Positions 93 to 15,996 of a stretch of 15,996 bases of DNA are shown one piece after another. Position 1 is the first letter of the stretch; each line of letters begins with the position of its first letter. The notes under the pieces are model-generated. The model saw only the letters and a list, made by a program, of their open reading frames with translations, made no database searches and was not told the origin of the DNA. Position numbers and translations under genes: made by a program. This DNA comes from Gemmatimonadaceae bacterium (GTDB taxonomy: Bacteria; Latescibacterota; UBA2968; UBA8231): positions 1-15,996 of the forward strand of contig PBSR01000189.1 of assembly GCA_002726335.1 (NCBI GenBank). Direction: 5' to 3'.

Positions 93-764
93 TCAACCAT
101 TGTCCCGTGCCTGCCACCTGGCGAAGGTGAAATCGTCCGACTGAACGAAGCCGTGAATCTCGGCTTCCATCTGCCGCACTTCTGCCGCTGCAGCGGCGAC
201 GTCGGCCGCCCGATCGGCGGGGATGCGCACACAGCCGTCCGCATCGGCGAACATCAGGTCTCCGGTGTGCACACGCAGCTGGCCCACCGTCGTCGACTCG
301 CCGAAGCGCTGCAGGTGGAACACACCGTGACCCGGCACGGCACCCCATGCCCACATGGGCAGGCCGACGCCCTCGATTCCCGGGACATCCCGTACCGTGC
401 CATCGACGACGGCACCCACCACACCGAGACGTTTGTGCAGACCGGCCATGCCATCACCGAAGCTGGCGCCCCTGCCCGGGCGGGAGTCGATGTCTTTCAT
501 CACCGTCAGCAGCGGTCCTTCGGTGTCGTTCAACAGCTCGTAGTAGCTGTCCCACGGCACCGATGGCGAATCGGGGTCGTTGGTCGTGATCTCGGCGGTG
601 ACCACATACCCCAGTGCCGGCCCCAGTCCCGGCAGCAGGCAGCGGATCGTGTGGTCCGTGTACTCCTCATTCGGCAGGCCGCCGAGTTTGACCAGGGCGT
701 TGAACAGCGTGGGCGAATCGAACCGGGCAAGCTCATCGAGCACGGTGGTGTCCACACGGATCAT
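93..764 (-). CDS. RraA-like / 4-hydroxy-4-methyl-2-oxoglutarate aldolase-family protein
   Basis: This 223-residue protein belongs to the RraA-like family, which includes divalent-metal class II pyruvate aldolases (HMG/CHA aldolase, oxaloacetate decarboxylation) and the RNase E inhibitor RraA. The family core is visible: a G-D-G-M-A segment near residues 103-107, then VVGAVVDGTVRD with the Arg125-Asp126 pair that in aldolases binds the carboxylate and the metal, and a late GDLMFADADG-VRIP strand (about 168-182). Length matches the family. The ATG at 764 lies 22 bp after the DUF1854 stop, preceded by a weak GAG-type ribosome site, so it is probably the last gene of the ABC/DUF1854 operon. The family covers several activities, and sequence alone does not choose between a cytosolic aldolase or decarboxylase and a regulatory role. 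Confidence 0.85.
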   Translation of the reverse strand: MIRVDTTVLDELARFDSPTLFNALVKLGGLPNEEYTDHTIRCLLPGLGPALGYVVTAEITTNDPDSPSVPWDSYYELLNDTEGPLLTVMKDIDSRPGRGASFGDGMAGLHKRLGVVGAVVDGTVRDVPGIEGVGLPMWAWGAVPGHGVFHLQRFGESTTVGQLRVHTGDLMFADADGCVRIPADRAADVAAAAAEVRQMEAEIHGFVQSDDFTFARWQARDNG

Positions 765-786
765 CAGAACTCATGTCCCATGGGGC

Positions 787-1353
787 TCACAGGACCATCT
801 CCACGAGACCCAGACTCTTCTTGTCCAGGTCCCCGAGATTGGGAATCTCGAAGCGGTTGCCATCCACATCGACTAGCAGCAGGCGGTGGTCGCCCAGCCA
901 CTGGGCATTCTCGGCGACATTCTGCACGACGAACTCCCGCGGCCCTCGATTCGTCGCCACATCCCAGTAGGACGTGCCGAACTCGTTGCGGATCGAGATC
1001 ACCGACTCGATCGTCGATGTCAGGTAGCGACGGTCGAGTTCCTCCTGTACGATCTGCCGCATGTCCTCGTCCATGCGCTTCATGTCGGGAATCATGCAGA
1101 CTTCCTCGTCCTTGGCGTCGAGCAGGGAGATATAGCGCGTCGGATGTGACAGGGGCGCTGCCCGTACCACCTTGATACGGGTGTACGAGCGGTCCCCATC
1201 GATCGTCAGACGCAGCTTCCAGGCCGGCTCGCGGTACAGCCGCACCTTGCTGACATCCACATTCTCTGGGTGGGTCACCGTGATCGGCGTCGGTGTGTGC
1301 TTCTTCACCTTGCCGTTACCGGCGATCTTCTTCTCTTGGTCCACGTCTGTCAC
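787..1353 (-). CDS. DUF1854 family protein, partner of the ABC transporters
   Basis: The predicted 188-residue protein carries a DUF1854-type domain over roughly residues 40-185. Visible hallmarks are R-A-A-P-L-S-x-P followed by ISLLDAKDEEV, the charged helix ending EELDRRYLTSTI, the W-D-V-x-T-x-R-G strand and the closing F-x-I-P-N-L-x-x-L-D. The open frame extends to 1962, but everything before 1353 lies inside the upstream ABC gene. The GTG at 1353-1351 overlaps that gene's TGA (GTGA), implying translational coupling. There is no signal peptide or membrane segment, so it is probably cytosolic. The function of the domain is unknown. From memory, proteobacterial relatives are annotated as cyanophycin-metabolism-associated and sit beside an ABC transporter of the type found here. 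It may be an accessory subunit of that transporter, which is inference. Confidence 0.85.
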   Translation of the reverse strand: MTDVDQEKKIAGNGKVKKHTPTPITVTHPENVDVSKVRLYREPAWKLRLTIDGDRSYTRIKVVRAAPLSHPTRYISLLDAKDEEVCMIPDMKRMDEDMRQIVQEELDRRYLTSTIESVISIRNEFGTSYWDVATNRGPREFVVQNVAENAQWLGDHRLLLVDVDGNRFEIPNLGDLDKKSLGLVEMVL

Positions 1354-3632
1354 GATTCCAGTTCCTTGCTCACGGTCATCGCCGATGATTCCTGTTGTGT
1401 CTTCACAAGCTTGTAGAAGAAGCCCTGCTGCGCCATCAGCTCCTCGTGCGTGCCCACCTCGACGATCCGCCCGGCGTCGAGCACCACCAGTCGATCCGCC
1501 GAACGCAAGGTCGATAGCCGGTGGGCGATGGCAAAGGTAGTGCGTCCCTCCACCAGACGCGCAATGGCCTGCTGGATCTTGGCCTCCGTCGGCGTATCGA
1601 GAGAGGATGTGGCCTCGTCGAGGATGAGAATTCTGGGATCGTGGAGGATCGCCCTGGCGATGGCGATACGCTGCTTCTCGCCGCCTGACAGCTTGTTGCC
1701 CTGCTCTCCGACCTGCATGTCGTAGCCATCCGCCTTGGCGATGACGAACTCGTGGGCGTTGGCGGCGTAGGAGGCGCGCAGCACATCGTCGAACTTCACC
1801 CCCGGCTTGCCGTAGGCGATGTTCTCCGCAATGGTGCCGTCGAACAGAAACGACTGCTGGGCCACCAGCCCGATCTGCGAGCGCAGGTCCTCCAGCCGGA
1901 TGTTGCGGATGTCGACACCATCGATCTGCAGGCTCCCCCGGGTCACGTCGTAGAACCGACACAGCAGATGGATGAGGGTCGACTTGCCCGCTCCCGACTT
2001 GCCGACGAGACCGATCATCTCCCCGGGCCGCACCGACAGACTGGCGCCACGCAGCACGGGCTTGCCGGGATCGTAGCCGAAGAAGGCGTCCTCAAACTCG
2101 ACCTGACCGCGCAGCTGGGGCATGGGCGTGGCAGCAGGATCCTGGAAGGGTTCGGACCTGGCGTCCATGACCTCGAAGATCCGCTCGGCGCCGGCATAGG
2201 CGCGCATCATGAAGCCGTAGAAGTCGCCGAACCACTTCAGCGGCTGGTAGAGCATCCACACGTACGTGATGAAGGCCATCAAGGCTCCGGGGGTCAGGCT
2301 CTCGCCCAGCACCTTGCGGCCACCGAAATACCAGACGAAGAACACGCCGGAGCTCATGAAGAAGTTGGTCACCATCCAGAACACGATCCAGTGACGCTCC
2401 GCCGACACGCTGACGTCCCGCAGGTCGATGTTGCGTCGATCGAAGCGCTGCCCCTCACGCTGCTCCTGGGCGAAGGCCTTGACCACCCGGATCCCGCGGA
2501 TGGACTCGTTCAGGTGAGAAGTAAGGCGTGACCACTTCGCCGACCAGCGCACCCAGTAGGCTTCCATGCGGTTCCAGATCAGCGTCGATGCCACGACGAT
2601 GGGGGGCACGGGCAGCAACACCCACAGGGTCAGCTCCCAGCTCATGTAGCCGAGAACTCCCAGGATACCGACGACCATCAGACCGTTGCTGATGATGTAG
2701 GGGATATCGAAGATCAGGTAGATCTCGACCAGGTCCGAGTCGTTCGACATACGTGAGATGAGAGCCCCCACCTTGCGCTTGTCGTAGAACCGCAGGGGCA
2801 GGTACATCAGCGCCCGGTAGAGATCGGCGCGCATCTTCTCGATGGCACGGAAGCCGACCCAGGCGCCCACCCAGCGGCGCCCTACCGCAGTTCCCCACGC
2901 CAGTACACGCAGGCCGAAGAGGCCGGCCACCAGCCATACGAGCAGAGGGAAATTCGCCGTGGGTATGAGCACGTCGTCGATGATATGCTTGGTGATCAGC
3001 GGCGGCAGCAGGTCGAGACCGGTCTCGGCCACAAGGATGGCCAGCAGCAGGACCACCCGCGCTCTGTACGGCGCCATGTAGGCCAGCAGGCGCTTGAGCG
3101 TATCCAGCTTGTGCACGCAGGCAGGACAGACGCCGTCCTTCTCCGGCAAGACTCGATGGCAGCGGTCGCACCGACTCCGCTCGACGGTCGTTGCCAGCGT
3201 CGGTTCCTCGCCGACCGACACCTGTTGCAGAGTCTCTGCCACTTCGGAGAACTTGGGCGCCAGGCTGTTGGAGTAGTAGACCTGGGCCGGTTCCCCGGTA
3301 TGCCGTTCCACCTCCAGGCGGCCGCCGCCTACCAGAGGCTCAACCCTCGCCGCGCGTACATCGCTCAGCGGGAACTGCTGCACGGCGGCCAGGGCAGCCC
3401 CATTTGTCGCCTGTGTGCCATTGGCATGCATGATGAGCAGCCGACGGTCGGTGATCACCAGCCAACGCTCGGCAAACACGTCACGGTCGGCCATGTCGGT
3501 GGCGACACGGATCCACACCCGTTCGTCATCTTCGGTGGCCGCTGCCACTCCGGCCGACACGACGTCCGGCGAATCCTCCCGGAAGGGAGACGCCCCCTCC
3601 GCGGAGACCTTGATCTGAGTCTGAGTTGTCAC
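1350..3632 (-). CDS. ABC exporter half-transporter with PH-like and zinc-ribbon N-terminus (second copy)
   Basis: This 760-residue protein fuses an ABC type-I exporter to an unusual cytosolic N-terminus. Residues about 35-140 look like a bacterial PH-like beta domain (WLVITDRRLLIM, then [12 protein letters not shown]). A CX2CX10CX2C zinc ribbon follows at C155/C158/C169/C172. The membrane domain spans about 185-470. The ATPase has Walker A GKSGAGKST (544-552), Q592, signature LSGGEKQ (648-654), Walker B ILILDEATSS with Glu673, and His704, so it looks catalytically complete. The start is GTG at 3632, with AGGA just upstream and 10 bp from the preceding stop. It is homologous along its whole length to the neighbour ending at 3643, which supports a heterodimer encoded by tandem genes. 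Homology to lipid, peptide and drug exporters does not identify the substrate. Confidence 0.9.
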   Translation of the reverse strand: MTTQTQIKVSAEGASPFREDSPDVVSAGVAAATEDDERVWIRVATDMADRDVFAERWLVITDRRLLIMHANGTQATNGAALAAVQQFPLSDVRAARVEPLVGGGRLEVERHTGEPAQVYYSNSLAPKFSEVAETLQQVSVGEEPTLATTVERSRCDRCHRVLPEKDGVCPACVHKLDTLKRLLAYMAPYRARVVLLLAILVAETGLDLLPPLITKHIIDDVLIPTANFPLLVWLVAGLFGLRVLAWGTAVGRRWVGAWVGFRAIEKMRADLYRALMYLPLRFYDKRKVGALISRMSNDSDLVEIYLIFDIPYIISNGLMVVGILGVLGYMSWELTLWVLLPVPPIVVASTLIWNRMEAYWVRWSAKWSRLTSHLNESIRGIRVVKAFAQEQREGQRFDRRNIDLRDVSVSAERHWIVFWMVTNFFMSSGVFFVWYFGGRKVLGESLTPGALMAFITYVWMLYQPLKWFGDFYGFMMRAYAGAERIFEVMDARSEPFQDPAATPMPQLRGQVEFEDAFFGYDPGKPVLRGASLSVRPGEMIGLVGKSGAGKSTLIHLLCRFYDVTRGSLQIDGVDIRNIRLEDLRSQIGLVAQQSFLFDGTIAENIAYGKPGVKFDDVLRASYAANAHEFVIAKADGYDMQVGEQGNKLSGGEKQRIAIARAILHDPRILILDEATSSLDTPTEAKIQQAIARLVEGRTTFAIAHRLSTLRSADRLVVLDAGRIVEVGTHEELMAQQGFFYKLVKTQQESSAMTVSKELES

Positions 3633-3642
3633 GTCCTGATCC

Positions 3643-5895
3643 CTATTCCGCGATGGCGATGATCTTCGAGGCTTCCTGCTGCATTTTGACCAGGTCGTGG
3701 AACACGCCCTGGCGCTGCATCAGCTCCGCGTGTGTACCCTGCTCGACGATGCGGCCCTCATCCATGACGACAAGCCTCCCGGCATCCCTGAGCGTCGACA
3801 GCCGATGGGCGATGGCGAAGGTCGTGCGCCCCTCCACCATGCGATCCATGGCCTGCTGAATCTGCCTCTCCGTCTCCACGTCCACCGAGCTCGTCGCCTC
3901 ATCGAGGACAAGGATTCGCGGGTTGTGCAGCATGGCCCGGGCGATGGCCACACGCTGGCGCTCACCCCCTGACAGACGGTTGCCCTGTTCACCGACCTGC
4001 GTCTCGTAGCCGTCCGGCTTGGCCAGGACGAAGTTGTGGGCGTTGGCCAGCCGCGCCGCCGCCATCACCTCGTCCAGTCTTGCCCCTGGTTTTCCGTAGC
4101 CGATGTTCTCGGCGATCGTACCGGAGAACAGCACCGGGTCCTGCAGCACGATGCCGATCTGCCGGCGCAGATCGCGCAGCCGGATCCGACGGATATCGAT
4201 GCCGTCGAGCTCGATGGATCCGTGATCGGCGTCGTAGAAGCGTGCAATGAGATTGATCAGTGTCGTCTTGCCCACGCCGGAACGACCGACGAGACCGATC
4301 ATCTCACCGGGCTGGATATCGAGGTCGATCCCCTTGAGGACCGGTTTGCTCTTGTCGTAGCCGAAGGTGACATCGCGGAAGGTGATCCGTCCCTCCATGT
4401 CCTGCATACGCAGGGCCTTGTCGTCGTCGAAAGACTCGGGAACGGTATCGATCACCTCGAACACACGCTCGGCGCCGGCGAAGGCGCGCGACATCCACGA
4501 GTTGACCTCGCCGAACCACTCCAGCGGTCCATAGACCATGAACATGTAGGAGTAGAACGCGATCAGCGTTCCCAGGGACATCTTGCCATCGATTACCTCC
4601 TGGCCACCGAAGAACCAGACGGCGATGACTCCCAGACCTGTGAGGAACGTCACGGTGGAGAAGAAGATCGTGCGATTGACACTGGTCTGCACGCCGATGT
4701 CGGTGATCCTGCGGTTGAGCCGGTCGAACGTGCCGATCTCCCTGCCCTCCTGAGCAAAGGCCTTGACCACGCGGATCCCTGTGAGAGCCTCAGCCGTCCG
4801 GTCTGTCAGGTTCGACCAGGTCTCTCCCCAGCGCCGGAAGAAGCGTCGCATGCGCTTCCAGAAGACAACCCCCCACACCATGATGATGGGTACGGGGGCC
4901 AGGGTGATCAGGGTCAGCTCCCAACTCATCCACAACAGCAGCCCGACGATCCCGACGATGAGCAAGCCATTGATGACGAGATAGGGCAGTCCGTCGACCA
5001 GAAAGTCCTGCAGACGACCGGTGTCGCGCGTCACCCGGGACATCAGCGCGCCGACCTTACGTTTGTCGTAGAACTGCAGGGACAGGATCTCGAGGCGCTG
5101 GTACAGCTGGCTGCGAATGTCCGCCGTCGCCCTGGCCCCGAGCCAGACCGCCACCCAGCCGTGCACCCACTCGGCCCCCCAGCTGACGAGGCGGATGCTG
5201 ATGAGGGTCAGAACCAAAAAACCCAGCAGCTGGAAGCGGGTTTCCAGATCTGCCGGGAGGCTCGGGTCCTGCGAAGGGACGAGGACGTTGTCGAAGAGAT
5301 GTTTTATGACCAGCGGGGGCGCCAGTTCGGCCCCGGTAGTGATCACCGAGGCCAGCGCCATGACCACCGCCTTCCATCGATAGGGTGCCAGGAAGGCGGA
5401 GATCCGCTTCAGGGTTGACCACTTATGGATACAGGCTGGGCAGATGCCGTCTCTCTCGGGCAGCAGGCGGTTGCATCGGGTACAGCGCATGGCCTCGAGG
5501 GCAGAATCGACGCGAAAAGGCCGGCCGACACGCAGCTGCTCAAGCCCGCGAGCGACCTCGGAAAACTTGTCGCTCAGGGATTGTGTGTACGGAACATGGA
5601 CAGTCGGCGCATCGCGGCGTTCCACCTCGAGTCGGCCGCCTCCGACGAGAGGCTCGGTGTGGACGCGGAGAATCTCGTCCACCGGTACGCTCAGCGGCTC
5701 CTCGTCCGCGGTCAGAATGACCAACCGCTTTGCCGTCATCGCCAGCCAGCGGTCGCCAAAGCGCGCAGCATCCGGAGCCATATCCGCTGACACGCGAACG
5801 AGGACCTCCTCGTCCTCAGCGATCACGGCGTCGAGACGTGCCTCAATGTGGTCTGGTGTCGGCTCCAGAAGCCTCGCTGTCTGCTCGGTGTCCAT
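3643..5895 (-). CDS. ABC exporter half-transporter with PH-like and zinc-ribbon N-terminus (first copy)
   Basis: This 750-residue protein has the same order of parts as its downstream neighbour: a PH-like segment at about 28-122 ([24 protein letters not shown]), a CX2CX10CX2C ribbon at C138/C141/C152/C155, an ABC type-I transmembrane domain at about 165-460 that includes [13 protein letters not shown], and an ATPase domain. The ATPase shows Walker [10 protein letters not shown] (537-545), Q585, signature LSGGERQ (641-647), Walker [11 protein letters not shown] with Glu666, and His697. Both copies keep the catalytic glutamate and histidine, so neither is a degenerate partner of the kind seen in many heterodimeric exporters. 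The ATG at 5895 follows AAAGAGA. It is the first transporter gene after the small HTH-like gene, 106 bp away, and likely shares its transcript. The substrate is unknown. Confidence 0.9.
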
Positions 5896-7080: not shown

Positions 7081-7116
7081 GGCTCCCCTGGAGAGCCAGC
7101 TCTCTTGGAAGAGCCG

Positions 7117-7935
7117 ATGACACAGACACAGACCACATCCGATGCCGCCGCCGTTGACCCCGTCCACGCCTGGGACGTGCACAATGAGCGGATCCTCGGC
7201 CATCTCGAGAGTCAGGACTTCGAATCGATGGACGCCCTGCCGGTGCTGAAGTGGGCTGCCGGCACCTTCGACGCCGATCGACTCGTCCTCAGTACCAGCT
7301 TCCAGTACTCTGGTGTGGCCATGATTCACATGGCCGTCGAAGCCGGACTGCAGCTGCGCTACGCTACCATCGACACGCTGCGCCTGCACCCCGAGACCTA
7401 TGCCTTTCTACGCGAAGTCGAGGCGCGTTACGACATCGACATCGAGGTGCAGCGGCCTGAATCAGACCAGGTGCAGAGCATGGTCCGTCGCTTTGGCGAG
7501 TATCTGTTCTTCGATACCAAGACGCTACAGGAGTACTGCTGCCAGATCCGCAAGGTGAAGCCGAACGAGCAGCTGTTGATGACGGTGGACTGCTGGATCT
7601 CGGGCATGCGGCGGGATCAGTCCAACCTGCGCCGCGACACCCCGAAAGCGATGACCGTCGGTGAGTATGGCTCGCGGCGGCAGATCCTCAAGCTCAATCC
7701 GATGGCGGACTGGGGTGAGGACCGCCTGTTGTCCTACATAGAAGACAACGACATCCCCCGTCATCCGCTGTACGATCAGGGCTACAAGAGCATCGGCTGC
7801 TTCATCTGCTCGACGCCCGTCGGTGACAACGAGGACCAGCGGGCCGGCCGCTGGCGCTGGTTCAACTCCGACGACCGGATCGATCCTCAGGAGGCCAAAG
7901 AGTGCGGCCTTCACGTTCCGATGTACAACATCTGA
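7117..7935 (+). CDS. cysH: Assimilatory APS reductase, iron-sulfur type
   Basis: This 272-residue protein is a phosphoadenylyl/adenylyl-sulfate reductase. It reduces adenylyl sulfate to sulfite and AMP in cytosolic sulfate assimilation. Visible features are the nucleotide-binding STSFQYSGV segment (59-67), DTLRLHPETY (86-95), Cys141-Cys142 in YCCQIRKV, Cys228-x-x-Cys231 in GCFICSTP, and the C-terminal KECGLH with nucleophile Cys263. The CC...CxxC set binds a [4Fe-4S] cluster and marks the APS-using class rather than the E. coli PAPS enzyme. The usual DTG before RLHPETY reads DTL here. ATG 7117 is preceded by GGAAGAG; an in-frame TTG at 7105 would add four residues and is less likely. No other sulfate-assimilation gene is in the window. 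The upstream palindrome suggests dedicated control. Confidence 0.93.
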   Translation: MTQTQTTSDAAAVDPVHAWDVHNERILGHLESQDFESMDALPVLKWAAGTFDADRLVLSTSFQYSGVAMIHMAVEAGLQLRYATIDTLRLHPETYAFLREVEARYDIDIEVQRPESDQVQSMVRRFGEYLFFDTKTLQEYCCQIRKVKPNEQLLMTVDCWISGMRRDQSNLRRDTPKAMTVGEYGSRRQILKLNPMADWGEDRLLSYIEDNDIPRHPLYDQGYKSIGCFICSTPVGDNEDQRAGRWRWFNSDDRIDPQEAKECGLHVPMYNI

Positions 7936-7940
7936 GCGAC

Positions 7941-9731
7941 ATGCAGTTGAGGCCCATTCCAGGCCACCCTCAACGAAAGCGGCTCCGGTGGCTGGTCCCC
8001 GCCTTTTTCATCCTCCTCGGCGCCTACGGCTGCGGCGATACACCGGATTCGAACGGCACCTCACAGACCCTGCGTAGCGTCCCGCGGAACCGCACCCTGA
8101 TCCTCGACTGTGCCGAGATCAACATTTGCGGTGGCCAGTTCCAGGACCACAACTCGTTCAATCCCTTTCTCGCCGGAACCACCTCGCGCACCGGTTTCAA
8201 CTTCCTCTACGAACCGCTCTACTTCTACAACGCCTTCCGGGATGAGATGATTCCCTGGATCGCCACCGGGCACCAGTTCAACAGTGACTACACCGAGGTC
8301 GTCATCCACATCCGCGACGGCGTCAGGTGGAGCGATGGGGCGCCGTGGACCGCACACGACCTGGTCTTCACCATAGAGATGCTCCAGGCACACGCACCCG
8401 AGCTGGTCTACAGTGTCGACATGCAGACCTGGGTCACACAGGCCGTTGCCGTCGACAGCCTCACGGCCCGGATCACCCTGACTGCGCCCAACCCGCGCTT
8501 CGTGTTCTCCTATTTCACCAGCAACTTCGGCATCGGCGTGCCGATCGTTCCACGGCACATCTGGCAGGGTCAGGACGCCAACGCCTTTCTCAACTTCGAT
8601 CGGGCTCTGGGTCTGCCTGTCTTCAGCGGCCCCTATCAGCTGGCGTTGTCCTCATCGCAGCAGCGTATCTGGGATCTGCGTCGCGACTGGTGGGGCAAGG
8701 AGACGGGATTCTCCGAACTGCCCGAGGTGGAACGCCTCATCTATCTCACGTATCGGGAGGAGTCCAAGCGCGTGCAGGACCTGATCGCCAATACTCTTGA
8801 TACCAGTCTCGACCTGCGGCCGCCCAACATCAGGACCGTGCTGGACCGCAACCCGCGGGTCACGACGTGGACGGGACGGGAGCCACCCTATGGCTACGTC
8901 GACTTCTGGCCGATCTCGCTGGGATTCAACAATCTCGAGGAGCCCTTCTCGGACCGCGATGTGCGTCGCGCCATCAACTATGCCGTCGATCGCGAGCAGC
9001 TGGTGGAGGTGGGCTGGCAGAAGTCCGGAACGCCGACCCTGCTGCCCTTTCCCGACTACCCTGCGTTGCGCCCCTTCTTCCTCGCGGTGGAGGATCTTCT
9101 CGTCGAACACGAAGTCGGTATCCATAGCCTGGAAAAGAGTGCGGCCATCATGCGCCAGAAGGGTTGGACACGATCGGGTGACGGATTCTGGACCCGCGAC
9201 GGACGTCCCATCAAGATCAACATCGACATCTTCCCGATCTTCAATGACCTGACCCCCGTGCTGGTGGCGCAGTTGGAACGGGCCGGCTTCGATGCCAACT
9301 TTCGCATGACGTCGGATGTGTATTCTCGCATGGCGCAGGGCGAAGCCATGGCCTTCATCAGCGGTCACGGCGGCTCCGTGCGCGACCCGTACTTCACCCT
9401 GCGCCTCTATCACAGTCGCTTCGTTCGCCCCACTGGGACCTCGGCCGAGCATTTCTGGCGCTGGGGGAACGAGTCCTTTGATCAGATCGTCGACCGCATG
9501 GCCGGTGTGGCTCAGGACGATCCGGAACTGATCCGGCTGTATCGTCAGGCCATGACGATCTGGCTGGCCGAGCTGCCGTCGATCCCCCTGGTCCAGTGGT
9601 ATCACCGGATTCCGCACAACGAGACGTACTGGACCAACTGGCCGTCAGCCGCAGACCCGTACATCAACAGCGCCTACTGGCATCGCGTCTGGCTGCTGGT
9701 GCTGTTGGAACTGAAGCCGACGCAGGCGTAG
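7941..9731 (+). CDS. ABC transporter substrate-binding lipoprotein, family 5 (peptide/nickel type)
   Basis: This 596-residue extracytoplasmic protein belongs to solute-binding family 5 (DppA/OppA/NikA-like). The N-terminus is basic (RKRLR) with a hydrophobic stretch ending GAYGC, so Cys31 is the probable lipidated residue. Family landmarks follow: IRDGVRWSDGAPWTAHDLVFT (about residues 115-135), and later EEPFSDRDVRRAINYAVDRE. Ligands in this family include peptides, nickel chelates, opines and sugars; none can be chosen here. ATG 7941 is preferred because it starts 5 bp after the cysH stop and leaves a normal lipoprotein signal; the same frame is open to 7902 inside cysH. No permease or ATPase of this transporter class lies nearby, so it either works with a distant system or has another role. 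Confidence 0.9.
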   Translation: MQLRPIPGHPQRKRLRWLVPAFFILLGAYGCGDTPDSNGTSQTLRSVPRNRTLILDCAEINICGGQFQDHNSFNPFLAGTTSRTGFNFLYEPLYFYNAFRDEMIPWIATGHQFNSDYTEVVIHIRDGVRWSDGAPWTAHDLVFTIEMLQAHAPELVYSVDMQTWVTQAVAVDSLTARITLTAPNPRFVFSYFTSNFGIGVPIVPRHIWQGQDANAFLNFDRALGLPVFSGPYQLALSSSQQRIWDLRRDWWGKETGFSELPEVERLIYLTYREESKRVQDLIANTLDTSLDLRPPNIRTVLDRNPRVTTWTGREPPYGYVDFWPISLGFNNLEEPFSDRDVRRAINYAVDREQLVEVGWQKSGTPTLLPFPDYPALRPFFLAVEDLLVEHEVGIHSLEKSAAIMRQKGWTRSGDGFWTRDGRPIKINIDIFPIFNDLTPVLVAQLERAGFDANFRMTSDVYSRMAQGEAMAFISGHGGSVRDPYFTLRLYHSRFVRPTGTSAEHFWRWGNESFDQIVDRMAGVAQDDPELIRLYRQAMTIWLAELPSIPLVQWYHRIPHNETYWTNWPSAADPYINSAYWHRVWLLVLLELKPTQA

Positions 9732-14196: not shown

Positions 14197-14268
14197 GACT
14201 CGAAAGTAGGATGAGCCGCAGGCCGCGGCTATTTGACGCTGCGCCGCCTCCCCCCCAATCTCTCGCTC

Positions 14269-15048
14269 ATGACCCGTGCTGTGATCCGACCCCGGAGCGC
14301 TGCCTGGTGGATCCCGCTGTTCCTCTTTGCCGGAATCTCGGCCAGGGCGGAGCCAGTCACCGTGTTCGCTGCCGCCAGCCTCTCCGGCGCCCTCAACGAG
14401 TTGTGGCCGCGCGAGCGCCACACCGACATCAGTCTGTCCTTTGCCGGCTCGTCGCTGCTGGCGCGACAGATCGAAGCCGGAGCGCCCGCCGATCTCTATC
14501 TGTCAGCCAGCCAGGACTGGATGGACTACCTGCAGGTGCGGGGACACATCGACAGCACAACCCGGGTGGACCTGTTCGGCAACCGCCTCGTTCTCATCGC
14601 CCCGACAGACGAGGGGTTCGCACTGGTGGCCTCCCCGCGGGCCGATATCGGGGGTGCCTTCAAAGGTCGGCTTGCCCTGGCGGATCCGGACCACGTACCG
14701 GCCGGCATCTATGCCCGTCAGGCCCTGCAGACACTGGGCTGGTGGCCGACGCTGGTACACCGGCTGGCTCCCGCCAGCGACGTGCGCGGGGCTCTGGCCT
14801 GGGTCGAGCGCGGCGAGTGTGACGCTGGCATCGTCTATGCCACCGACGCCGCCTCCAGCCGACGCGTGCAGGTCGTCGTCTCGATTGCGGACAGCCTGCA
14901 TACACCGATCCGCTACCCGGCCGCCCTCGTGGCGGGCAGAGCCACAGCCGCCACCCGTCGCCGGCTGGACACCCTGCAATCGGCAGCGGCGCTGGCCGTA
15001 TTCCGCCGCCATGGCTTCAGCATACTGATGGGAACCAACGGAGAATAG
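14269..15048 (+). CDS. modA: Molybdate ABC transporter substrate-binding protein
   Basis: This 259-residue periplasmic protein captures molybdate or tungstate for the ModBC transporter. It has a signal peptide with a hydrophobic core (WWIPLFLFAGI) and a likely cut after ARA-27. The ModA landmarks are VTVFAAASLSGAL (30-42), AGSSLLARQIEAGAPADLYLSAS (59-81), LADPDHVPAGIYARQAL (137-153) and GIVYATDA (187-194). ATG 14269 leaves a normal signal peptide; a TTG at 14233 in the same frame would add 12 residues and is less likely. No clear Shine-Dalgarno precedes either. The gene is divergent from murD across 72 bp, and no ModE-type operator is evident there. The stop is 8 bp before modB. Confidence 0.9.
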   Translation: MTRAVIRPRSAAWWIPLFLFAGISARAEPVTVFAAASLSGALNELWPRERHTDISLSFAGSSLLARQIEAGAPADLYLSASQDWMDYLQVRGHIDSTTRVDLFGNRLVLIAPTDEGFALVASPRADIGGAFKGRLALADPDHVPAGIYARQALQTLGWWPTLVHRLAPASDVRGALAWVERGECDAGIVYATDAASSRRVQVVVSIADSLHTPIRYPAALVAGRATAATRRRLDTLQSAAALAVFRRHGFSILMGTNGE

Positions 15049-15056
15049 CTAAGCCG

Positions 15057-15749
15057 ATGGCCGTTCTCACACCAGATGAATGGGAAGTCCTTTTCCTCTC
15101 CCTCCGTGTGGCCCTGGCCAGCGTGGCCCTGAGCCTGCCGACGGCAGTCGCCATGGGCTGGCTGCTGGCGCGACACGAGTTTCGTGGCAAGCTCCTCGTC
15201 GACGGTCTCTGCCACCTGCCTCTCGTGCTGCCCCCCGTCGTCACCGGCTATGTGCTGTTGCTGATCTTCGGCCGGCATGGCTGGCTCGGACCCCTGCTCG
15301 ATGCTCTCGGCCTGCGTCTCGCCTTCGACTGGAAGGGCGCCGTCCTCGCCTCCGCCGTGGTGGCCTTCCCGCTGTCGCTGCGCGCCGTGCGCCTCGCCAT
15401 CGAGGAAATCGATCCGCGTCTGGAGGGTGTTGCCCGCACTCTGGGGGCCGGCCCCTGGCGTGTGTTCTTCACCATCACTCTCCGGCTTGCCGCCCCGGGC
15501 CTATGGGTGGGAGCCATGCTCGCCTTCGCTCGCAGCCTCGGTGAGTTCGGCGCCACCATCACCTTCGTCGGCAACATCAGCGGGCAGACGCGGACGATTC
15601 CCGCCGCGGTTTATACGTTCCTGAACCAGCCTGGTGGTGAGGCGGCCGCCCTGCGTCTGGTGTGGGTCTCCATCGCGGTGTCGCTGGCCGCGTTGCTGGG
15701 CAGCGAGTGGGCGGCACGGCGGTCCCGTCACCGCGCCAGGACTACGTGA
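15057..15749 (+). CDS. modB: Molybdate ABC transporter permease
   Basis: This 230-residue inner-membrane protein forms the channel of the molybdate importer. It has about five membrane segments, the usual number for ModB, and the cytoplasmic EAA loop that docks on the ATPase (EGVARTLGAGPWRVFFTITL, about residues 123-142). It ends with ARSLGEFGATITFVGNISGQ and TIPAAVYT, both strongly typical of ModB. ATG 15057 is 8 bp after the modA stop, and its TGA shares one base with the ATG of modC, so the three genes form one translationally linked operon. The C-terminal arginine-rich tail is cytosolic. Confidence 0.92.
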   Translation: MAVLTPDEWEVLFLSLRVALASVALSLPTAVAMGWLLARHEFRGKLLVDGLCHLPLVLPPVVTGYVLLLIFGRHGWLGPLLDALGLRLAFDWKGAVLASAVVAFPLSLRAVRLAIEEIDPRLEGVARTLGAGPWRVFFTITLRLAAPGLWVGAMLAFARSLGEFGATITFVGNISGQTRTIPAAVYTFLNQPGGEAAALRLVWVSIAVSLAALLGSEWAARRSRHRARTT

Positions 15750-15996
15750 TGCTCAGTCTTCGTCTGCAGCGGCAGCTCGCCGATTTCCGCCTTGACGTCG
15801 ATGTGGTCTGCCACAAGGCGGTGACGGCGATCCTCGGGCCCTCCGGCGCCGGCAAGACAACGCTGCTGAATCTTGTCGCCGGCCTCCGCCGGCCTGACGC
15901 CGGGCATGTGGAGTTGGACGGTCACGTGCTGTTCTGCGCCGAACACGGCATCGACCGGCCGCCGGAGCGGCGCCGCCTGGGATTCGTCTTCCAGGA
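15749..15996 (+). CDS. modC: Molybdate ABC transporter ATP-binding protein (5' part)
   Basis: The gene starts at ATG 15749, overlapping the modB stop by one base (TGATG), and runs off the window after 82 complete codons. The visible part has the ModC-type beta strand ending AILGPSGAGKTTLLNLVAGL with Walker A at 30-38 (Lys36), then RRPDAGHVELDG, PPERRRLGFVFQ with the Q-loop Gln82 at the edge. PPERR-x-LGFVFQ is typical of ModC and related molybdate/sulfate ATPases. The signature, Walker B and any C-terminal TOBE (molybdate-sensing) domain lie outside. It energises ModB for molybdate import. Confidence 0.9.
   Translation, partial: MLSLRLQRQLADFRLDVDVVCHKAVTAILGPSGAGKTTLLNLVAGLRRPDAGHVELDGHVLFCAEHGIDRPPERRRLGFVFQ

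What the first reader, a model, noticed from the sequence alone, without database searches (positions are those of the whole stretch)
93..5895. Two tandem PH/zinc-ribbon ABC exporters with DUF1854 and an RraA-like protein
Two full-length, mutually homologous ABC half-transporters are followed by an overlapping DUF1854 gene and then an RraA/aldolase-like gene, all on one strand with gaps of 22 bp or less. From memory, ABC/DUF1854 pairs in proteobacteria are annotated as cyanophycin-associated, yet no cyanophycin synthetase or cyanophycinase is visible. A heterodimer dedicated to an unknown substrate, with a DUF1854 accessory subunit and possibly an aldolase-type enzyme acting on the same compound, would be a distinct version of the system.
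Basis: partly seen in the sequence, partly recalled or inferred. Interest (0 to 1): 0.7.

Follow-up and report, generated by a model that had tools for sequence, protein, structure and literature searches.

The report
Paired ABC exporter with DUF1854 partner
These genes encode an old, co-inherited pair of membrane export pumps with a small partner protein of unknown function; relatives show that the "cyanophycin" label databases give the family does not fit here, and the neighbouring aldolase-like gene is probably a passenger.

Summary
In detail: two ABC half-exporters (750 and 760 aa, 50% identical), a DUF1854 gene overlapping the second by 4 bp, and an RraA-like gene, all on the minus strand. 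The ABC_A N-terminus models as a PH fold before a CxxC..CxxC ribbon. Two ABCs precede DUF1854 in 37 of 80 related loci; in 27 selected pairs A and B fall in separate clades. Cyanophycin synthetase passes its cut-off in 1 of the 80 genomes, against 15 of 15 genomes whose DUF1854 passes NCBI's cyanophycin model, where a single ABC stands beside it. Single-chain ABC-DUF1854 fusions exist. The RraA-like gene was found beside 3 of 80 loci and is missing from an otherwise shared gene order in relatives. Best reading: a heterodimeric exporter with DUF1854 as cytosolic subunit. The substrate is unknown; RND pumps beside 17 of 20 paralogous ABC-DUF1854 loci hint at amphipathic efflux. New variant of a known kind.

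The parts
3643..5895 (-). ABC_A, type IV ABC half-exporter, 750 aa, ATG start
   Evidence: ORF; PF00664 175.4 bits and PF00005 122.5 bits; falls in the A clade of the tree
5530..5805 (-). PH-fold domain of ABC_A (residues 31-122)
   Evidence: AlphaFold2 model, mean pLDDT 93.4; PH domains among Foldseek matches
5431..5484 (-). zinc-ribbon CxxC..CxxC of ABC_A (residues 138-155)
   Evidence: sequence pattern; Cys 138 and 141 invariant, Cys 152 and 155 nearly invariant among 57 sequences; metal binding inferred
4522..5361 (-). transmembrane domain of ABC_A (residues 179-458)
   Evidence: PF00664
3889..4338 (-). ATPase domain of ABC_A (residues 520-669)
   Evidence: PF00005; canonical motifs
1350..3632 (-). 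ABC_B, type IV ABC half-exporter, 760 aa, GTG start
   Evidence: ORF; PF00664 153.5 and PF00005 116.4 bits; falls in the B clade
3171..3632 (-). N-terminal region of ABC_B homologous to the PH region of ABC_A (residues 1-154)
   Evidence: BLASTP with ABC_A; aligned in A3
3117..3170 (-). zinc-ribbon CxxC..CxxC of ABC_B (residues 155-172)
   Evidence: sequence pattern
2238..3050 (-). transmembrane domain of ABC_B (residues 195-465)
   Evidence: PF00664
1605..2054 (-). ATPase domain of ABC_B (residues 527-676)
   Evidence: PF00005; canonical motifs
787..1353 (-). DUF1854 protein, 188 aa, GTG start overlapping the ABC_B stop by 4 bp
   Evidence: PF08909 139.7 bits; 447 homologues at E 0.001 or better
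93..764 (-). RraA/aldolase-like protein, 223 aa; adjacent, probably not part of the conserved unit
   Evidence: PF03737 64 bits; adjacent in 3 of 80 loci; D-X20-R-D pattern at residue 104

Best explanation
ABC_A and ABC_B form a heterodimeric type IV ABC exporter with two working ATP sites. Each half carries a cytosolic PH-like domain and a zinc ribbon ahead of the membrane domain. DUF1854 is a cytosolic subunit bound to the ATPase side, acting as a gating or substrate-presenting partner. The pump moves an amphipathic compound or lipid out of the inner leaflet; this substrate class is the weakest step. The system does not serve cyanophycin. The RraA-like gene is a local neighbour in the window's close relatives. 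Shown by computation: gene order, domain content, co-inheritance of A and B, intact key ATP-site residues, natural ABC-DUF1854 fusions, rarity of cyanophycin synthetase in relatives. Inferred: heterodimer formation, the site and role of DUF1854, direction of transport, substrate class.
For: Two or more ABCs upstream of DUF1854, gaps under 1.6 kb, in 37 of 80 loci (the 80 are the best of 157 confirmed). In a quick tree of 108 ABCs, A and B orthologues form separate clades spanning MAGs titled Latescibacterota, Gemmatimonadota, Poribacteria, Zixiibacteriota, Handelsmanbacteria and Gammaproteobacteria, with branching that looks alike by eye. In 27 pairs that I selected from those clades (26 loci and the window), orthologues average 64% (A) and 61% (B) identity, A versus B in one locus 51%; A and B distances correlate at r 0.93, reached by 0 of 2000 permutations. 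Walker A Lys, Walker B Glu and H-loop His are present in 27 of 27 of both kinds. Four Poribacteria genomes with only ABC_B beside DUF1854 have A-type ABCs elsewhere. Cyanophycin synthetase over cut-off: 0 of 40 and 1 of 40 genomes, against 15 of 15 for the cyanophycin-type DUF1854. Efflux hint: 17 of 20 second-type ABC-DUF1854 loci in the same phylum lie within about 2 kb of an RND pump. Among solved structures the best totals are ABCB4 and P-glycoprotein (604.7 bits for ABCB4, two stretches), the best single stretches multidrug exporters (411 and 398 bits).
Confidence: 0.6

Rival explanations
1. ABC_A and ABC_B are separate homodimeric exporters that merely share an operon and DUF1854.
For: Both have complete ATP-site motif sets. 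Single-ABC DUF1854 loci exist in Armatimonadota and Pseudomonadota, so a homodimer can work.
Against: A and B stay paired across phyla as distinct clades. Seven columns are fixed differently in A and B (90% or more each), including the Walker A T/S position and two positions at the D-loop.
Confidence: 0.2
2. The RraA-like protein is a working part that makes or breaks down the transported compound.
For: 22 bp downstream on the same strand. Also adjacent in L001, L002 and L005. Carries the D-X20-R-D pattern, recalled as the aldolase motif; PMC5065237 (passages seen) says that most homologues carry one of two catalytic motifs.
Against: 3 of 80 loci only, at a threshold of 60 bits to the window protein. 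L003, L004 and L060 keep the flanking genes beside DUF1854 with no RraA.
Confidence: 0.1
3. The pump is an importer or does a non-export job despite its exporter fold.
For: A few type IV folds import (recalled, no call). Direction is not tested here.
Against: Nearest solved structures by sequence are exporters or lipid translocators. The window's own family-5 binding protein (7902-9731) gave no match among the ORFs of the 80 loci; other binding proteins were not searched for.
Confidence: 0.07
4. It is a cyanophycin-linked transporter, as the NCBI family names suggest.
For: Best NCBIfam matches are NF052233 and NF052234.
Against: Scores are below both cut-offs (648.7 and 611.7 against 880; 95.7 against 150). 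Cyanophycin synthetase over cut-off in 1 of 80 related genomes, not seen in that genome's DUF1854 locus.
Confidence: 0.04
5. It replaces MsbA as the lipid A flippase.
For: In G005, G009, G010, G011 and G014 the four best MsbA-model matches are all DUF1854-linked ABCs and none passes the cut-off (positions; 40 candidates scored per genome).
Against: No LpxC match in 9 of 9 genomes of that phylum searched, while 7 of the other 11 have it over cut-off and 4 below. Gammaproteobacterial MAGs G035 and G038 carry a separate over-cut-off MsbA.
Confidence: 0.03

Closest known systems
NCBIfam NF052233/NF052234, cyanophycin metabolism-associated ABC transporter and DUF1854 protein
   Same: Near full-length match including the N-terminal region; ABC followed at once by DUF1854.
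   Different: Scores below cut-off; two ABCs not one; no over-cut-off cyanophycin synthetase in 79 of 80 related genomes.
Activated-sludge 'Group 1' cphA cluster with an ABC transporter (PMC10687191, passages of section 3.3 seen)
   Same: Two cphA copies and an ABC transporter, resembling the arrangement in L117-L131.
   Different: No cyanophycin synthetase over cut-off in the genomes of the 37 two-ABC loci; the passages seen do not mention DUF1854.
Heterodimeric multidrug ABC exporters (TmrAB, TM287/288 kind; names recalled)
   Same: Two distinct half-transporters; sequence relatives (411 and 387 bits).
   Different: Both ATP sites keep their key residues here; the matches begin at residue 153 or later, so the PH region has no counterpart in them.
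MsbA lipid A flippase
   Same: Membrane and ATPase domains score 501.9 and 469.9 bits with the MsbA model.
   Different: Below the 602-bit cut-off; no LpxC match in the window-phylum genomes searched.
RraA-like / HMG-CHA aldolase family
   Same: PF03737 match and D-X20-R-D pattern.
   Different: Far below the cut-offs of the named aldolase models.

Membership tests
Type IV ABC exporter half-transporter | ABC_membrane domain fused to ABC_tran | tested here: met
   Both proteins over Pfam cut-offs
Type IV ABC exporter half-transporter | Walker A, signature, Walker B Glu, H-loop His | tested here: met
   Canonical in both window proteins; across 27 selected pairs Lys, Glu and His in all, signature LSGGE in 47 of 54
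Pfam PF08909 DUF1854 | Score over gathering cut-off 26.8 | tested here: met
   139.7 bits
NF052233 cyanophycin-associated ABC (equivalog) | Score over 880 | tested here: not met
   648.7 and 611.7
NF052234 cyanophycin-associated DUF1854 protein (equivalog) | Score over 150 | tested here: not met
   95.7
Cyanophycin-associated ABC cluster | Cyanophycin synthetase in the genome or beside the locus | tested here: inconclusive
   Relatives: 1 of 80 genomes over cut-off, not in its DUF1854 locus. The window's own genome is not held
MsbA lipid A flippase | Score over 602 with TIGR02203 | tested here: not met
   501.9 and 469.9
MsbA lipid A flippase | Lipid A pathway present (LpxC) | tested here: inconclusive
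   Relatives: no match in 9 of 9 genomes of the phylum of G011; own genome not held
Classic heterodimeric ABC exporter with one degenerate ATP site | One non-consensus ATP site | tested here: not met
   Both window proteins canonical; key residues intact in 27 of 27 pairs
Heterodimeric ABC exporter | A and B associate physically | not testable with these tools
   The structure tool predicts single chains
PH domain | Seven-stranded barrel capped by a C-terminal helix | tested here: met
   Model of the ABC_A N-terminus; PH domains among the matches
RraA-like superfamily | PF03737 over cut-off | tested here: met
   64 bits against 24.5
Named LigK / HMG-CHA aldolase (TIGR02798, NF006731) | Score over model cut-off | tested here: not met
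   38.7 against 304.5; 44.4 against 179

The most novel reading that the evidence does not exclude
DUF1854 defines an unrecognised superfamily of ABC exporters that need a dedicated cytosolic gating subunit, with PH domains and zinc ribbons on the half-transporters. The two-ABC form is an obligate heterodimer with two active ATP sites, and cyanophycin association is one lineage's use of a much broader machine.
Probability: 0.45. Interest if true: 0.65.

Novelty: new variant of a known kind. Interest (0 to 1): 0.48.

Why it matters
A database name ties this transporter family to cyanophycin, yet in the genomes sampled here only the proteobacterial branch goes with cyanophycin synthetase as a rule. 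DUF1854 is found in 54 of 64 genomes of the window's likely phylum, with two to four matches in 47 of them, and in 100 of 121 genomes of the Armatimonadota sample, but no paper in the held library uses its name. A conserved cytosolic partner for ABC exporters would be a clear target for a mechanistic study.

Tried and rejected

Limits of the counts: the 80 loci are the best 80 of 157, mostly MAG contigs; 13 have under 4.6 kb upstream of DUF1854 and a few (L021, L032, L045) end soon after it. In L012 and L043 the second ABC is a fragment at the contig end, and in L039 ABC_A is split. In L053, L072, L075 and L079, counted as none, an ABC lies further upstream. The 27 pairs were picked by hand from the tree clades; the L042-type loci, L078, L012, L037 and L039 were left out. 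For the RND count I chose regions by hand from the list. Of the 26 loci shown, six were left out of the 20: L190 is a two-ABC locus, L191 and L192 show DUF1854 with neither ABC nor RND, and L133, L135, L143 are third-type without RND. The three misses are L142, L187 (contig ends inside the ABC) and L200. L186 is cut at the contig end yet shows an RND. The loci come from related genomes and are not independent. The tree used the quick method, and its root is a midpoint for drawing only.
Full report
WHAT IS THERE. On the minus strand: ABC_A (5895-3643), ABC_B (3632-1350), DUF1854 (1353-787, overlapping by 4 bp) and an RraA-like gene (764-93, after 22 bp). The two ABCs are 50% identical. Pfam supports all four families over their cut-offs. 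The N-terminal 172 residues of ABC_A model as a PH fold followed by a cysteine ribbon (mean pLDDT 93.4). PH domains are among the Foldseek matches, including Sin1 PH (E 8.9e-4) and a bacterial PH protein (3dcx, TM-score 0.65 by target length); the top rows are GRK2, a kinase recalled to contain a PH domain. The ribbon pattern is present in 108 of 109 related ABCs.

HOW WIDESPREAD. A scan of one genome per species with a DUF1854 alignment confirmed 157 relatives and kept 80 loci. By tblastn, 37 of 80 have two or more ABCs upstream with gaps under 1.6 kb, 25 have one and 18 none, several of these at contig ends. The two-ABC loci come from MAGs titled Latescibacterota, Gemmatimonadetes or Gemmatimonadota, Poribacteria, Zixiibacteriota, Handelsmanbacteria, Gammaproteobacteria and Myxococcales. 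Of the nine such loci with a Gemmatimonad title, seven lie in genomes that the genome tool puts in the phylum of G011, titled Latescibacteria. DUF1854 itself is found in 54 of 64 genomes of that phylum, with two to four matches in 47, and in 100 of 121 of the Armatimonadota sample.

A PAIR, NOT A RECENT DUPLICATE. In a quick tree of 108 ABCs, A and B orthologues form separate clades whose inner branching looks alike. The single ABCs of Armatimonadota fall on the A side, and the 15 cyanophycin-linked ABCs of the Pseudomonadota sample form one group (support 100; midpoint root, so no direction is claimed). The tree tool warned that long branches meet: the second ABC of the L042-type loci and the ABC of L078 have unsure places. 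Over 27 selected pairs, orthologues share 64% (A) and 61% (B) identity on average, A and B of one locus 51%; A and B distances correlate at r 0.93, which shared species history alone could also produce. Where Poribacteria have only B beside DUF1854 (four genomes), A-type genes lie elsewhere in the genome. Walker A Lys, Walker B Glu and H-loop His are intact in both in 27 of 27 pairs, the signature motif in 47 of 54 proteins. So this is unlike the exporters with one degenerate site.

DUF1854 BELONGS TO THE PUMP. Four ORFs from the Armatimonadota sample join ABC and DUF1854 in one chain; Pfam confirms ABC_membrane, ABC_tran and DUF1854 in the two scanned. A protein search aimed at that C-terminal region returned 6 clusters, all six with the three domains. 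DUF1854 comes last, after the ATPase domain, which places it in the cytosol (inference). Its own model is confident (mean pLDDT 87.2, pTM 0.64) but matches no solved fold clearly.

NOT CYANOPHYCIN. Cyanophycin synthetase passes its cut-off in 0 of 40 and 1 of 40 of the genomes behind the 80 loci; in the one case the DUF1854 locus shows no such gene. Genome completeness is not told for these. In a sample of 299 genomes of the phylum of G037 (titled Gammaproteobacteria), 15 have a DUF1854 over NCBI's cyanophycin model cut-off. All 15 have cyanophycin synthetase over cut-off, and in all 15 fetched regions a single ABC with DUF1854 stands divergently beside two such genes, or one where the contig ends (L131). 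This resembles the cluster of two cphA genes and an ABC transporter described in PMC10687191 (passages seen). The gammaproteobacterial MAG G037, with the two-ABC form, has none. The window proteins fall below both NCBI cut-offs.

THE RRAA GENE IS A NEIGHBOUR. It was found beside DUF1854 in L001, L002 and L005 and in no other of the 80 loci at a 60-bit threshold. L001 and L002 carry DUF1854, RraA, then two downstream genes; L003, L004 and L060 carry DUF1854 and then relatives of those two genes without RraA; no relatives of those two genes were matched in L005, which has RraA. So it was gained, or lost in sisters, late. It keeps the D-X20-R-D pattern, recalled as an aldolase motif, so it may well be an active enzyme.

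WHAT IT MIGHT MOVE. Lipid A is unlikely: LpxC gave no match in 9 of 9 genomes of the phylum searched, although in five of them the four best MsbA-model matches are the DUF1854-linked ABCs. A second type of ABC-DUF1854 locus in the same phylum lies by an RND pump in 17 of 20 loci, in two arrangements (three of the pumps confirmed as ACR_tran by Pfam, the rest by similarity). No RND match was found at L001-L080. The hint at efflux of amphipathic compounds is therefore for paralogues rather than for this locus. A divergent CysH gene accompanies 13 of 80 loci, as in the window, and is probably inherited gene order.

VERDICT. A real, conserved exporter type, with no paper in the held library using the DUF1854 name: heterodimer likely, DUF1854 partnership well supported, substrate open.

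Noticed in passing
window 7105-7935: CysH-like reductase (NF002537 205.8 bits, cut-off 154) divergent from ABC_A; a CysH homologue lies upstream on the opposite strand in 13 of 80 DUF1854 loci.
   Followed up: partly
L144:5068-7902, L145:8256-11060, L146:5656-8448, L147:4688-7753: Natural single-chain fusions of ABC exporter and DUF1854 in the Armatimonadota sample.
   Followed up: yes
L132, L134, L139, L182-L186, L188, L189, L193-L199: Paralogous single ABC plus DUF1854 next to RND pumps in two different arrangements.
   Followed up: partly
L137:8849-10807, L141:8558-10342: DUF1854 beside ABCs whose match to ABC_A begins only at residue 164, that is without the PH/zinc-ribbon region.
   Followed up: no
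L001:8820-9983: The ABC pair is collapsed into fragments beside an intact DUF1854 and RraA gene: decay or misassembly.
   Followed up: no
L007, L060: CysH and DUF1854 kept but no ABC found between them; possible assembly collapse.
   Followed up: no
The genome search control set: Sulfolobus acidocaldarius has a match over the DUF1854 cut-off, so the family may reach archaea.
   Followed up: no
genomes G001, G004, G005, G009, G010, G011, G014, G028, G406: No LpxC match in 9 of 9, although published Latescibacteria single-cell genomes were reported to have lipopolysaccharide genes (PMC4454575, passages seen).
   Followed up: partly
window 14233-15994: ORFs that look like a molybdate ABC importer (ModA, ModB, ModC); label recalled, not searched.
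   Followed up: no
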